NCBI GenBank assembly: GCA_023255955.1
Contig: JAGDWD010000008.1
Coordinates: 1-64,000 of the forward strand
Length of the DNA stretch: 64,000 bases
Direction: 5' to 3'
Origin: Desulfurococcales archaeon
Lineage (GTDB): Archaea; Thermoproteota; Thermoprotei_A; Sulfolobales; NBVN01
Below are positions 10,829 through 35,336 of the stretch, piece after piece; position 1 is the stretch's first letter; each line of letters starts with the position of its first letter. The notes below the pieces were generated by a model. The model saw only the letters and a list, made by a program, of their open reading frames with translations. It was not told the origin of the DNA and searched no databases. The position numbers were made by a program, and so were the translations under genes.

Positions 10829-11134
10829 GGGGGCTGTTCTGTTTTTGATTGGTGGGTGTTTGGTTTATGATTTTTGTTTTTAGGGTTGCTGTGTTCTGGG
10901 GTTGTGTGTTAAGCTTATAAACTTCATTCTTATAAGTAGCTTGGATACCCCGCTGAGTAATGGGAGCGGTGCTCCGAGCTCTGCGGGGTTAGGTGTAGAT
11001 GTGTCCCGCATGCCGTTCGGGACGAACGCCACCCATGACCCCACAGAGGTACCAAAAACCCTGTGGACGAGGTGGAAGTCCCTAGATGTGGTGAACAAAC
11101 ATAAACCCACATCAACGAGCATCTAGGGACAAAC
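10829..11134 (+). repeat. Dispersed structured-RNA repeat, copy A (full length)
   Basis: About 306 bp. It opens ggctgttctgttttt, continues as a C-poor G/T-rich stretch to about 10910, then a TATA box, then a hairpin-rich section. Visible stems are ACCCCGC/GCGGGGT (near 10945 and 10984) enclosing GGGAGC/GCTCC, GTCCCG 11003-11008 with CGGGAC 11018-11023, CCACAG 11041-11046 with CTGTGG 11061-11066, and TCCCTAGATG 11079-11088 with CATCTAGGGA 11120-11129. It ends acaaacgg. Copies B and C match along almost the whole length, with base changes that keep the stems. No convincing protein is encoded. Together with the flanks it fills the gap 10721-11184. Confidence 0.85.
10914..10922 (+). promoter_or_regulatory. 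TATA box inside structured repeat A
   Basis: cttataaac in the context gttaagcttataaacttcat. Copy B keeps the context as gttaagcttattaacttcat at 13810-13829. Usual spacing places the transcript start near 10945, just where the hairpin-rich part begins, which argues that the repeat carries its own promoter. Confidence 0.5.
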
Positions 11135-11184
11135 GGGAGGTCAGGTTAAAGGCTTTAGATAGTTCTAGTAATGGTGGTGTGAGT

Positions 11185-11943
11185 ATGTACGTTGGTTGTT
11201 GCGGTTACTGTGTCAGTAGGTCGAGGTACTACAAGGTCTTCAAGACTGTTGAGCTCCAGGAGACCTTCTACGATCTTCCTCCACTGGAGCGTTTAGAGAG
11301 TCTTCGGAGGGAGGCACCTGAGGGCTTCGTGTTCAACATGAAGGCGTATCAGGGGGTAACACACGACCTAGACTCACCTACGTGGAGGAGGTCGAGGAGG
11401 AGACCTAGCGAGGAACTGAGGGGTAGGATAGGATATCTCAGGCCCACCAAGGAGAACCTAGAGTTGTGGGATGAGATAGTTGAGAGAGCTAGAGCTATCA
11501 GCGCGAGGGTCGTAGTAGTTCAGACACCTCCCTCATTCGGGTACTCGGAGGAGAACTTCAGGGCTGTCCGAGAGTTCTTCTCCTCCACCGTAACCAGTAA
11601 CTTCATCGTAGGGTGGGAGCCTAGGGGTACCTGGCTCGATAACCCGGATAAGGTGAGGGAGATAGTGGGGGCCTTCGAGAGCCTTATACACGTGGTCGAT
11701 CCTTTCAGAGCTAGGCCCGTGCTGGTGAAGGACGTCAGCTACTTCAGGCTTCACGGTATAGGTGGTAAGGAGGTTAACTACAGCTATAAATATACTGACG
11801 AGAATCTTAGAGCTCTCTGCGGCTTTGTGTCTGAGGTAGCTAGGACGTCTAGGGAGATCTTCATAATGTTTAATAACGTAGCGATGGCTCAGGACTCACA
11901 GAGGTTCATAGCTCTCTGCTCCTCGGGGGTCAGCAATGAGTAG
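11185..11943 (+). CDS. DUF72 (YecE-like) TIM-barrel family protein
   Basis: About 252 residues with the usual DUF72 landmarks: an N-terminal YVGCCGY strand, VELQETFYDLP, FVFNMKAYQG, a central VVVVQTPPSF, GWEPRG, and YFRLHG near residue 190. The family adopts a TIM-barrel fold and its reaction is not established. ATG 11185 follows GGTGG at 11173-11177; an in-frame GTG at 11179 is the alternative. A TATA-like ctttagat at 11153-11160 separates it from repeat A. The 3' end overlaps the archease gene by 8 bp, so the two form an operon. Confidence 0.88.
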   Translation: MYVGCCGYCVSRSRYYKVFKTVELQETFYDLPPLERLESLRREAPEGFVFNMKAYQGVTHDLDSPTWRRSRRRPSEELRGRIGYLRPTKENLELWDEIVERARAISARVVVVQTPPSFGYSEENFRAVREFFSSTVTSNFIVGWEPRGTWLDNPDKVREIVGAFESLIHVVDPFRARPVLVKDVSYFRLHGIGGKEVNYSYKYTDENLRALCGFVSEVARTSREIFIMFNNVAMAQDSQRFIALCSSGVSNE

Positions 11944-12373
11944 CTGCAACTACTTCAAGTTCCTGGAGCACACAGCTGATGTTTATGTTGAGGTGTGTGG
12001 TGAGACTCTGGAGAAGGCGTTCGAGCTAGCTGGGAAGGCTCTCTTCGAGGTTATGACGGATACAAGTAAGGTAGAGCCGAGACAGACGTACGTAGTTGAG
12101 GATAGAGGATTCGACCTAGAGAATGCTCTGTACAGGTGGCTGGAGGATCTACTAATAGAATACGGGAGGTCCGGCACGGTCTTCAGCACCTTCAACGTCG
12201 AATACGTTAGAAAGGAGGGTGAAGAATACGTATTTAGAGCTACATGCTCCGGGGAGCAGTTCGATTCAGAGAAACATGAAGCTAGAACAGAAGTAAAGGC
12301 AGTGACCTACTCACTGATGGAGGTAAGACCGACAGCTAGTGGGTGGATCCTGAGATTCGTACTAGACATCTAA
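11936..12373 (+). CDS. Archease (RtcB tRNA-ligase cofactor)
   Basis: Small metal-binding protein that activates the RNA ligase RtcB by helping guanylylation; it is needed for multiple turnover in tRNA splicing. The 145 residues include FLEHTADV with the metal-binding His/Asp at the N terminus, the acidic ALYRWLEDLLI helix, and HEARTEVKAVTY near residue 108. Length and motifs are standard. rtcB itself is not in the window. Confidence 0.93.
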   Translation: MSSCNYFKFLEHTADVYVEVCGETLEKAFELAGKALFEVMTDTSKVEPRQTYVVEDRGFDLENALYRWLEDLLIEYGRSGTVFSTFNVEYVRKEGEEYVFRATCSGEQFDSEKHEARTEVKAVTYSLMEVRPTASGWILRFVLDI

Positions 12374-12545
12374 CCCTCTCCACCGTTTTCTCTGAATACT
12401 TGCTGATTTACTCACTCGTTTACCTGGGAACCTCCACTACCTACAGAGGTTTAAAGTACCTATATTAGGTCATGGACGTTAGTTAAGCCAGGTAATATGG
12501 GACGGGGATCGTGAACCTAGCTTCCGGTAACTGTCTACGAAATTA

Positions 12546-13700
12546 CTAGATTGATATCTCTAAGGTGCTTCTTGAGGTGAGGGGAGCTACTAGGGCTCTA
12601 CTAGTTAAAGACTCTATGAACATCCTGATGTGGTTGTCGTAGCTGAGGTGCTTACCGACATGGACGTAGAGTCTCTTACCGGCTAAACCAACGGATCTTG
12701 CCAGTTTCAGTAGGGTGGGAACGCTTTTAGATAGGTAGTACTGCTGTCTCAGGTCCCTAGCTAAACGTGTGAAGTGGGACTGTACCCGGTACTTACCTCT
12801 CAGGATGAGTTCAGGGATAAGCCTGCTAGCTATCGATATTCCGTAGAGACCTCCCCCACTTAAGCTCTTCACCATAGCTACCGCATCCCCTAAGCCGACC
12901 ACTCCCTCACCTATAGCCTCTATCGGGTACCCACGCAGTACAGCACCACCGTAAACACCTGAGAACGGCTTGATGCTGCCGTAAAGCTTGGAGGCTAAGG
13001 AGGTCATCATTCTGAGACATTCTAGCGAGCTTATAGAGCGGTTATCTGAGGCACAGCCGATCGTCAGTCCCCTCCCTCCTAGCGGGACTAGCCAGGCAAA
13101 TCCTCCACCGAGGTAACTAGAGATTACTGCTGTGATCGAGTCCTCTATAAGTTCTGATCTGTTCCCAACCTCGACATCGACCTGGACACCGGAAAGAACC
13201 CGCACACACCGTTTCAGCCCTAGAAGACCGGGTAATCTAGCATTATACCCAGACGCTAGGACCAGGTAGTCGTAGTGTGAGCTACCGCTCCTAGACCTCA
13301 CGTCCCAGCCTCCCCCCAATCTTCGAACCTCGTAGACAGGGTCATTATAGGACACCTCAACACCTCTCAGCATGATATCGTTGAGTAGCATCCTCTCGAA
13401 CTTAACCCTATCTAACCTAGTGATAGCGTACCGGTCGTAGCTAAACGAGGCTGAGAGTTTAAGCTCGGGAACTAAGAGTGTGACTAACCTAAAGCGTGCT
13501 AGCTCAGCCTCCCTACTTAGAGGAAGCCTCTCAGCAGTCTCAACTGAGACAAGACCTGTACAGTGCGGCCTAGCCGGGCTTCCCCTAGCCTCGAAAACAC
13601 TTACCTCCAACGACCCGGCACTTCTAATTAGGTAGTAAGCAGAGAGCAGACCTGAAACACCAGCACCTATCACAGCGATCCTCGTGTTCGAGCTATCCAC
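12546..13700 (-). CDS. FAD-dependent geranylgeranyl reductase family protein
   Basis: A 384-residue flavoprotein with N-terminal GAGVSGLLSAYYL (dinucleotide binding, residues about 12-24), the family PHCTGLVS region (about 48) with a Cys-containing motif, and the second FAD motif GLGDAVAMVKSLSGGG (about 267). Relatives saturate the isoprenoid chains of archaeal lipids, but the family also holds other oxidoreductases, so the exact substrate is open. The start is GTG 13700. It diverges from repeat B, which begins about 15 bp upstream. Confidence 0.82.
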   Translation of the reverse strand: MDSSNTRIAVIGAGVSGLLSAYYLIRSAGSLEVSVFEARGSPARPHCTGLVSVETAERLPLSREAELARFRLVTLLVPELKLSASFSYDRYAITRLDRVKFERMLLNDIMLRGVEVSYNDPVYEVRRLGGGWDVRSRSGSSHYDYLVLASGYNARLPGLLGLKRCVRVLSGVQVDVEVGNRSELIEDSITAVISSYLGGGFAWLVPLGGRGLTIGCASDNRSISSLECLRMMTSLASKLYGSIKPFSGVYGGAVLRGYPIEAIGEGVVGLGDAVAMVKSLSGGGLYGISIASRLIPELILRGKYRVQSHFTRLARDLRQQYYLSKSVPTLLKLARSVGLAGKRLYVHVGKHLSYDNHIRMFIESLTSRALVAPLTSRSTLEISI

Positions 13701-13715
13701 AGTAGACCAGGTAAT

Positions 13716-14038
13716 AGTGGGCTGTTCTGTTTTTTATTAGTGGTTGTTGGGTTTATGGTTTTGTTTTGTGATTGGTTGTTTTAGAGTTGCTGTGTCTTGG
13801 GTTTATGCGTTAAGCTTATTAACTTCATCCCTAACCGACATGGACGTAGTGCCAGCTTCAGTAGGGAGCAACGCTCCGAGCTCTGCGGGGTTAGACGTAG
13901 ATGGGAGCTCCGTGCCGTTGGGCTCGACAGCCACCCATGACCCGCAGGGATACCCAAGACCCTGTGAGCGAGGTGGAAGTCCCTAGATGTGATGAGCGAA
14001 CATGAACCCACATCAACGAGCATCTAGGGACAAACGGT
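13716..14038 (+). repeat. Dispersed structured-RNA repeat, copy B (full length)
   Basis: Clear homologue of copy A from ggctgttctgtttttt to acaaacgg, about 323 bp. The TATA-like gcttattaac lies at 13814-13822. The stem that is GTCC/GGAC in A becomes GAGC 13905-13908 with GCTC 13922-13925 here, a set of paired changes. CAGGG/CCCTG and the terminal TCCCTAGATG/CATCTAGGGA pair are kept. The 3' flank 14039-14257 holds no recognised gene; a TATA-like attatag near 14215 may serve the next gene. Confidence 0.85.
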
Positions 14039-21473: not shown

Positions 21474-21722
21474 CCCGTTTGTCCCTAGATGCTCGTTGAT
21501 GTGGGTTTATGTTCGTTCATCACATCTAGGGACTTCCACCTCGCCCACAGGGTCTTGGGTATCCCTGCGGGTCGTGGGTGGCTGTCGAGCCCAACGGCAC
21601 GGAGCTCCCATCTACGCACAGCCCTAGGGAGCTTGGAGCATTGCTCCCATCACCCCCTAGAGCTTACACCCCTCCAATAATAAAATTCCCTACACAACCC
21701 TAATAAACTTTTCAGCCCAACA
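21474..21722 (-). repeat. Dispersed structured-RNA repeat, copy C
   Basis: Reverse-strand copy of the A/B repeat, most like B. Read on the minus strand it contains the GGGAGC-GCTCC hairpin within a CTAGGG/CCCTAG stem, the same GAGC/GCTC hairpin as B, CAGGG/CCCTG, and the terminal TCCCTAGATG/CATCTAGGGA pair, and it ends acaaacggg. The T/G-rich 5' part is shorter and more diverged than in A and B but keeps tgggctg and ttgtgtagg. It sits upstream of the MFS gene in the same direction. Confidence 0.82.
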
Positions 21723-21740
21723 GGATCACGCTATAGATTT

Positions 21741-21806
21741 GCTCCCCACACTCATCGGTCTACGTTCACTCGCAACACCTAGGGACCTCCAACTCACTAA
21801 CTCACT
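21741..21806 (-). repeat. Partial, degraded copy of the structured repeat (F)
   Basis: The string around 21768-21800 (tacgttcactcgcaacacctagggacctccaactcac) aligns with the 3' hairpin entrance of copy C at 21508-21545 with several substitutions. Only this end of the unit is recognisable. It directly follows copy C in the same orientation. The rest of 21807-21899 shows no feature. Confidence 0.45.
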
Positions 21807-34295: not shown

Positions 34296-34468
34296 TAGAA
34301 CCTACTTTACCTCCGTAGAGCCTGCCTAGGTTATAGGGCCCCGTACAGTCGGGCTCAACCACCACCTACGAACTCGCAGGGCCCTTGAGAGCCTGCTGAC
34401 TGGGTGGAAATCCCGGGCACTGCGAACAAATATAATAAATAGCAAAAGAGGATAAATATCCAGGGACA
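34296..34468 (+). repeat. Degraded copy of the structured repeat (D) in front of panB
   Basis: Aligns with the 3' two-thirds of copies A-C: gggctcaaccaccacc matches gggctcgacagccaccc, cgcaggg and ctg stems follow in order, then gggtggaaatcccggg and gcgaacaaa match ggtggaagtccctag and gcgaacata. It ends in atatccagggaca, a decayed partner of catctagggaca. Stem pairing is partly lost. The TATA box of panB lies inside its 3' end. Confidence 0.65.
34451..34459 (+). promoter_or_regulatory. TATA box of panB
   Basis: gataaatat, about 18-22 bp before GTG 34473, implying a leaderless or nearly leaderless transcript. It falls within repeat D. Confidence 0.5.
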
Positions 34469-34472
34469 GACT

Positions 34473-35336
34473 GTGTCTAGAGATAAGGTAACCCCATACC
34501 ACTTCATAAAGTCTAAGAGGGAGGGCCGTAGGCTTGTTATGGTCACAGCCTATGAATACACTCATGCTAAGCTAGCGGACGATGCGGGGGTTGATGGTGT
34601 GTTAGTTGGTGATTCACTCGGGATGGTTATAATGGGGTACAGATCGACACTACCTGTAACCTTCGGGGACGTTGCTCACCACCTCAAGGCCGTCTTAGCA
34701 GCTAACCCGAGAGCTCTCGTAGTGGCTGACATGCCGTTCCTCACTTATGAGGTAAGTCGTGAGGAGGCTGTTAGGAACGCAGGTAGGTACATAAAGATGG
34801 GTGCGGACGCTGTTAAGATTGAGGGAGGTGTTGAGGTCATAGATAAGGTGGAGGCGATGGTTAAGGCCGGCATCCCAGTTATGGGGCACATAGGGTTGAA
34901 CCCCCAGAGGTTCCTCGTGCTCGGGATGAGAGTTAGAGGTAAGACAGCTGAGGACGGTTCGAAGATCTACGAGGATGCTAAAGCTCTTGAGGAGGCTGGG
35001 GTCTTCTCAATAGTTATAGAATTCACTACGTCCGAAGTCGCTGCTGAGATAACGAAGGCTTTGAGAATACCGACGATATGCATCGGGGCCGGCCCTATGT
35101 GTGACGGCCAGATCCTCGTCTTCCACGACCTAGTCGGACTTAACACTAGCCCACCACCATTCGTTAAGAAGTACGCTGAGGGGTATCAACTCTTCCTCGA
35201 CGCGTTGAAGAGGTATACCGAGGACGTCAAGTCCGGGACCTTCCCGGAGGAGAGACACTACTTCAAGATGGCTCCGGAGGAGTACAGTAGGTTCCTAGAG
35301 ATACTTAACAAGAAAAAAGCTAGGAGTGGCTCTTAA
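34473..35336 (+). CDS. panB: 3-methyl-2-oxobutanoate hydroxymethyltransferase
   Basis: Transfers a hydroxymethyl group from 5,10-methylene-tetrahydropterin to alpha-ketoisovalerate, giving ketopantoate for CoA. The 287 residues show MVTAYEYTHAKLAD, VLVGDSLGMVIMGY (Mg-binding Asp about 48), VVADMPFLTYEV, VKIEGG (about 117), PVMGHIGLNPQ and TICIGAGPMCDGQILV (about 198). All key residues appear present. The 3' end overlaps the convergent tetraether synthase gene by 17 bp. Confidence 0.95.
   Translation: MSRDKVTPYHFIKSKREGRRLVMVTAYEYTHAKLADDAGVDGVLVGDSLGMVIMGYRSTLPVTFGDVAHHLKAVLAANPRALVVADMPFLTYEVSREEAVRNAGRYIKMGADAVKIEGGVEVIDKVEAMVKAGIPVMGHIGLNPQRFLVLGMRVRGKTAEDGSKIYEDAKALEEAGVFSIVIEFTTSEVAAEITKALRIPTICIGAGPMCDGQILVFHDLVGLNTSPPPFVKKYAEGYQLFLDALKRYTEDVKSGTFPEERHYFKMAPEEYSRFLEILNKKKARSGS

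What the first reader, a model, noticed from the sequence alone, without database searches (positions are those of the whole stretch)
11003..13925. Compensatory base changes prove pairing in one hairpin of the repeat
In copy A GTCCCG (11003-11008) pairs with CGGGAC (11018-11023). In copies B and C the same columns read GAGCTC (13905-13910) and GGGCTC (13920-13925): three pairs are swapped (T-A to A-T, C-G to G-C, G-C to C-G) and one becomes a G-T pair, while the loop tgccgt is kept. Such paired changes are hard to explain without selection on an RNA (or single-strand DNA) structure.
Basis: seen in the sequence. Interest (0 to 1): 0.7.

Follow-up and report, generated by a model that had tools for sequence, protein, structure and literature searches.

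The report
Transposon guide-RNA repeats with covarying hairpin
The hairpin is real and is one stem of a ~190-nucleotide guide-RNA scaffold that belongs to an IS607-type (TnpB) jumping gene of heat-loving archaea; the repeats in this window are stripped-down copies of that jumping gene that kept the guide RNA and lost the proteins.

Summary
The hairpin at 11003-11023 has swapped, still-pairing arms in copy B (13905-13925) and in copy C (minus strand, 21607-21587).

The repeat is a mobile element of about 240-320 bp with sharp ends (GGGCTG...ACAAACGG) and 37 strong copies in this 1.64-Mb archaeal genome. One intact parent (G000:C2 ~18.2-20.2 kb) encodes an IS607 serine-recombinase TnpA and a 435-aa TnpB. 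The last ~200 nt of that tnpB is the same sequence, so the repeat is the omegaRNA (reRNA) scaffold.

In 29 tnpB-linked relatives the hairpin takes 15 arm combinations around a nearly invariant loop; all six pairs show double changes, 99.4% of cells pair, and 35 of 38 inferred changes keep pairing.

The two hairpin types in the window were inherited from two older lineages (95% and 98% identical to different tnpB genes, 75% to each other), not compensated in place. Nine of 25 full-length protein-less copies have imperfect arms, against 1 of 29 tnpB-linked copies.

Rfam has no model for this RNA. Protein-less elements keeping a promoter-like left end plus the complete omegaRNA recur in other genera, even where TnpA and TnpB are absent. 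Function in trans is untested.

The parts
10831..11136 (+). Copy A, whole element (type-1 left end GGGCTGTTCTG... to right end ...ACAAACGG)
   Evidence: Boundaries shared by 25 full-length copies with unrelated flanks
10938..11136 (+). Copy A, omegaRNA scaffold
   Evidence: Covariance model R1, 172.8 bits, E 4.8e-53; single-sequence fold z -5.6
11003..11023 (+). Copy A, helix 3: the hairpin of the finding
10914..10922 (+). TATA-like box (CTTATAAAC) about 30 nt upstream of helix 1, candidate omegaRNA promoter
   Evidence: Read from sequence and present in varied form in the family alignment; inference, not tested
13719..14037 (+). Copy B, whole element; omegaRNA part 13846-14037
   Evidence: R1 133.7 bits; boundaries
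13905..13925 (+). Copy B, helix 3 with swapped pairs
13831..13866 (+). Copy B: foreign patch replacing the 5' strand of helix 1, matching 12651-12669 and 12699-12715 of the neighbouring gene
   Evidence: Repeats D8 and D9, sequences printed; helix 1 mismatched
21475..21717 (-). Copy C, short element with the other (parent-type) left end GGGCTGAAAAGTTTATT; helix 3 at 21607-21587
   Evidence: R1 174.7 bits; ends and hairpin
34311..34473 (+). Degraded relic of the same RNA
   Evidence: R1 41.1 bits, E 2.3e-11

Best explanation
The repeat is a protein-less (MITE-like) derivative of an IS607-family transposon whose right end encodes the omegaRNA of the transposon's RNA-guided nuclease TnpB. The hairpin is helix 3 of six helices of that scaffold. 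Shown: homology to the 3' end of an intact tnpB in the same genome, sharp ends, GG at both ends, and covariation of the stem across relatives. Inferred: the RNA is transcribed (from a left-end TATA box in short copies, as part of tnpB mRNA in the parent), TnpB binds it, the host DNA after ...ACAAACGG becomes the guide, and TnpB cuts the empty site next to a GG-containing motif so that the element is copied back. The short copies are moved by TnpA supplied in trans. Whether their RNAs still act is open.
For: Parent element with IS607 TnpA (NF033518, E 1.6e-71, above cut-off) and TnpB (PF07282 and TIGR01766 above cut-off) whose reading frame runs through the repeat core. TnpB model matches Cas12f, TnpB 8h1j and IS607 TnpB ISFba1 8iaz; D191, E279 and D365 invariant in 26 relatives. 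The tail encoded by the RNA region is modelled with low confidence, ten-residue pLDDT means 34-57 beyond residue 380. Six-helix structure with 31 of 48 pairs doubly changed; 35 of 38 helix-3 changes keep pairing on a tree made without those columns. Thirty-seven strong copies. Insertion at GG: one removal restores a 308-codon gene; IS607 crossover at GG, GGG TAM and a ~150-nt reRNA reaching past the right end are published for ISXfa1 (PMC10711439).
Against: No expression data. TnpB scores below NCBI's cut-off for guided_TnpB (79.8 vs 100 bits), and no TAM or cleavage was tested. Short copies show no clear purifying selection on stems (15 kept vs 11 broken rare changes), 9 of 25 have imperfect helix 3, and copy B has lost helix 1.
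Confidence: 0.93

Rival explanations
1. The short copies are passive debris moved by TnpA: the omegaRNA segment stays only because the right end (needed for recombination) lies in it, and their RNA has no role.
For: Imperfect helix 3 commoner in short copies (9/25 vs 1/29, p 0.003); rare-allele test shows no excess of pair-keeping changes; elements persist in genomes without IS607 TnpA or full TnpB, e.g. G007 and G114; copy B has lost helix 1.
Against: All 37 strong copies and the short elements of seven other genomes keep the scaffold from helix 1 to the right end, with two left-end types joined just before helix 1; short terminal sites would be expected to suffice for a serine recombinase (general knowledge, not tested here).
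Confidence: 0.5
2. The structure acts as single-stranded DNA in transposition, as hairpins do in IS200/IS605 elements.
For: Covariation alone cannot tell RNA from single-stranded DNA.
Against: The parent carries a serine recombinase that works on double-stranded DNA (NF033518; IS607 circular double-stranded intermediate, PMC10711439), not a Y1 transposase; the helices lie far from the left end; G-U pairs occur; ends share GG only.
Confidence: 0.03
3. The pattern reflects coding constraint on the TnpB tail (D[VG]..[VMI]P...), with pairing a by-product.
For: The hairpin is in frame in parent genes, and Asp, Pro and the loop codons are conserved.
Against: Residues at the arms vary widely (VSR..FGT, GSP..LGS, VRL..LAS, GWA..LPM) exactly so as to keep base pairs; the tail is modelled with low confidence; slid partners lose pairing.
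Confidence: 0.02

Closest known systems
IS607 TnpB reRNA with RAGATH-18 motif (ISFba1, PMC11061315)
   Same: Structured right-end RNA of ~190 nt next to an IS607 TnpB; same TnpB fold (8iaz).
   Different: No Rfam family, RAGATH-18 included, matches this RNA; here nearly the whole scaffold lies inside the tnpB reading frame; archaeal, divergent TnpB with no PDB relative by sequence.
ISXfa1 IS607 TnpB/reRNA (PMC10711439)
   Same: GG crossover dinucleotides at both ends, reRNA reaching past the right end, GGG TAM.
   Different: Bacterial; TAM and guide boundary not tested here.
IS607-related MITEs of Staphylothermus marinus (PMC2678158)
   Same: Protein-less ~260-nt repeats (14 copies) linked to IS607 elements in a related archaeon.
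   Different: Described there as flanked by inverted repeats and similar to sequence upstream of the transposase genes; no guide RNA mentioned in the passages retrieved. Those copies were not aligned here.
Archaeal IS200/IS605 TnpB omegaRNAs (SisTnpB1, PMC10640517; circular omegaRNAs, PMC12558985)
   Same: TnpB-associated right-end RNA in archaea, hairpins near the right end, guide from the flank.
   Different: IS200/IS605 family with AT-rich TAM (TTTAA); here a serine recombinase and GG ends.

Membership tests
IS607 family transposon (parent element) | TnpA = serine recombinase with MerR-like/HTH N-terminus | tested here: met
   NF033518 239.7 bits vs cut-off 110; PF00239 and PF12728 above cut-off
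IS607 family transposon (parent element) | Insertion by crossover at a GG dinucleotide, without longer target duplication | tested here: met
   25/25 left ends GGG, 24/25 right ends GG; L030 reading frame restored on removal leaving one GG
TnpB RNA-guided nuclease | RuvC D-E-D triad and TNB zinc-finger domain in the TnpB/Cas12f fold | tested here: met
   PF07282 above cut-off; invariant D191, E279, D365; fold matches
TnpB RNA-guided nuclease | RNA-guided DNA cleavage next to a TAM | not testable with these tools
   Needs biochemistry
omegaRNA / reRNA | Conserved structured RNA at the right end, overlapping or following the tnpB 3' end | tested here: met
   Six helices, 96.2% of cells paired, 31 doubly changed pairs
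omegaRNA / reRNA | Transcript that extends past the right end, with variable flank as guide | tested here: inconclusive
   Flank is variable immediately after GG; transcription not testable here
RAGATH-18 RNA | Match to the Rfam covariance model | tested here: not met
   No match of any Rfam family even at lax E-value
MITE (protein-less derivative of an IS) | No transposase gene, shared ends and homology with an autonomous element | tested here: met
MITE (protein-less derivative of an IS) | Terminal inverted repeats and target-site duplication | tested here: not met
   Ends GGGCTG.. and ..ACAAACGG are not inverted repeats and only GG is shared, as expected for IS607; hence 'MITE-like'

The most novel reading that the evidence does not exclude
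The short elements are mobile guide-RNA genes that exploit another element's TnpB: recurrent deletions in several genera stop just before the first omegaRNA stem because a promoter plus complete omegaRNA is the smallest unit that TnpA can move and TnpB can restore, by cutting empty sites in trans.
Probability: 0.3. Interest if true: 0.75.

Novelty: new variant of a known kind. Interest (0 to 1): 0.55.

Why it matters
It adds an omegaRNA family that is not in Rfam, tied to a divergent archaeal IS607 TnpB and nested in the tnpB reading frame, and found in 120 of 197 genomes of the order. It suggests why a class of archaeal 'MITEs' keeps a large structured right end, and makes a clear question testable: can a protein-less element use TnpB in trans for its own persistence?

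Tried and rejected
Rfam families: none match. PDB relatives of TnpB by sequence: none; fold comparison worked. The two other full-length tnpB genes (C9, C12:353 kb) belong to a different, IS200/IS605-type element. In-place compensation as origin of the A/B difference: rejected by segment identities. Selection on stems of the short copies: rare-allele test inconclusive. A TAM beyond GG: only a weak T preference right of GG (17/25 own copies, 20/40 elsewhere) and few C left of it. Single-sequence folds of A and B do not reproduce the whole consensus fold, since GTCCC of A can also pair with the last stem; the comparative structure was preferred.

Full report
1. Observation. Copy C is the minus-strand copy at 21475-21717, with the same arms as copy B. 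The loop is 9 nt (CRTGCCGTT).

2. Extent of the repeat. A search of the window's own genome (1.64 Mb, 13 contigs) with copy A found 43 matches. Full-length copies share sharp ends, GGGCTGTTCTGTTTTTGATT and CATCTAGGGACAAACGG, and have unrelated flanks. A covariance model built from relatives finds 37 strong copies (125-218 bits) and a few relics. Twenty-five of 25 full-length copies begin GGGC and 24 of 25 end GG; the first base after the right end is T in 17 of 25. In L030, taking out a short copy and leaving one GG restores a 308-codon reading frame (..ETGGDGYYDEY..), which shows precise insertion at GG.

3. The parent. At G000:C2 ~18.2-20.2 kb an element ends with the same right end. Its first gene is an IS607 TnpA (NF033518 E 1.6e-71; resolvase plus HTH domains), its second a 435-aa TnpB. 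tnpB reads through the repeat core to a stop about 10 nt before the right end. The AlphaFold model has mean pLDDT 84.5; ten-residue means beyond residue 380, the part encoded by the repeat core, are 34-57. The model matches Cas12f, TnpB (8h1j), Fanzor2 and the IS607 TnpB ISFba1 (8iaz). Invariant D191, E279 and D365 fit the RuvC triad. Fragments of further tnpA/tnpB copies lie at contig ends (C10, C11, C3), so more than one parent copy may exist.

4. Covariation. Sixty-one TnpB-encoding loci were found in named archaeal genomes (mostly Desulfurococcales, Acidilobaceae and other Thermoproteota), and matches in 76 of 197 genomes of the order. In these the hairpin is codon-aligned, and the arms take many sequences (GAGCCC, GAGGGT, GCCCGC, GGGCCG, GTGGGT, ATCCCA, GACCCG, GAGGCC, GAGGCT, GTCCCC, GTCCCG, GTCTCC and others), each with its complement, around a nearly invariant loop. 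In alignment A1 (29 sequences) RNAalifold gives 48 pairs in six helices. Cells paired: 96.2%, versus 80.8% in shuffles and 32-47% with slid partners; helix 3, the hairpin of the finding, has 6/6 pairs with double changes and 99.4% paired. On a tree built without the helix-3 columns, 35 of 38 changes in helix 3 are pair-keeping double changes over 15 arm states. Exchange of whole hairpin segments may inflate the number of changes, but not the fact that nearly all states pair.

5. What the A/B difference is. Over 44 nt, copy A is 95% identical to the parent tnpB of its own genome, copy B 98% identical to tnpB genes of other genera (L078, L086), and A and B 75% to each other. Diversity among the short copies is highest in the P2-P3 segment (0.20-0.22), against 0.07-0.08 in helix 1 and the right end. 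L013 combines arms of the two versions, and L002/L004 pair one arm of one version with a mixed other arm. So two old versions were inherited or exchanged. Copy B cannot itself be under selection for the whole fold, since helix 1 is destroyed by a 36-bp patch (13831-13866) matching two pieces of the adjacent gene (12651-12669 and 12699-12715).

6. State of the short copies. Stems are 94.4% paired, but imperfect helix 3 is commoner than in tnpB-linked copies (9/25 vs 1/29, p = 0.003), and rare changes in stems keep pairing 15 times and break it 11 times. In other genera (genomes G020, G007, G030, G024, G079, G015, G085) the short elements again consist of a left end with TATA-like sequence joined just before helix 1 and the complete omegaRNA. 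Order-wide, the RNA is found in 120 of 197 genomes, TnpB (E <= 1e-30) in 76. G007 (two contigs, 99% complete) has five RNA copies, three of them identical at different sites, no IS607 TnpA, and TnpB matches only to the RNA-encoded tail. Such copies therefore outlive, or arrive without, their helpers.

7. Mechanism. Shown: RNA-level selection, linkage to TnpB and TnpA of IS607 type, insertion at GG. Inferred from published IS607 systems (PMC10711439: GG crossover, GGG TAM, ~150-nt reRNA reaching beyond the right end; PMC11061315: 187-nt scaffold, AGGAG TAM): the flank is the guide, and TnpB cuts the restored GG site, favouring return of the element (homing model of PMC8612924). For short copies, function in trans is possible and unproven.

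8. Known and new. IS607 TnpB reRNAs are known, and IS607-related MITEs were reported in Staphylothermus marinus (PMC2678158) without mention, in the passages retrieved, of a guide RNA. My literature searches (open-licence papers only) did not find a description of protein-less IS607 elements as omegaRNA carriers. From memory, not checked: protein-less IS200/IS605 elements (PATEs) have been discussed together with TnpB and omegaRNA. The RNA is absent from Rfam 15.

Noticed in passing
13831-13866 versus 12651-12669 and 12699-12715: Copy B contains a 36-bp patch made of two pieces of the neighbouring minus-strand gene joined without the 29 bp between them: a templated repair or conversion scar that removed helix 1.
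   Followed up: partly
21750-21800 (minus strand), about 60 bp outside the left end of copy C: A degraded piece resembling the right-end arm of the same element (GAGTTGGAGGTCCCTAGGTG at 21776-21795, 3 mismatches).
   Followed up: no
G007:C1 (loci L205, L206, L207): Three identical ~245-bp omegaRNA elements at different sites in a near-complete genome that has no detectable IS607 TnpA.
   Followed up: partly
L057 (G000:C9:6500-9500) and L058 (G000:C12:352300-355500): Two intact IS200/IS605-type elements with a short Y1-like TnpA and a 422-aa TnpB: a second TnpB system in the same genome.
   Followed up: no
L060 (G000:C1:51500-54000): A broken second IS607-type transposase gene (48-51% identical to the parent TnpA) in two frames.
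   Followed up: no
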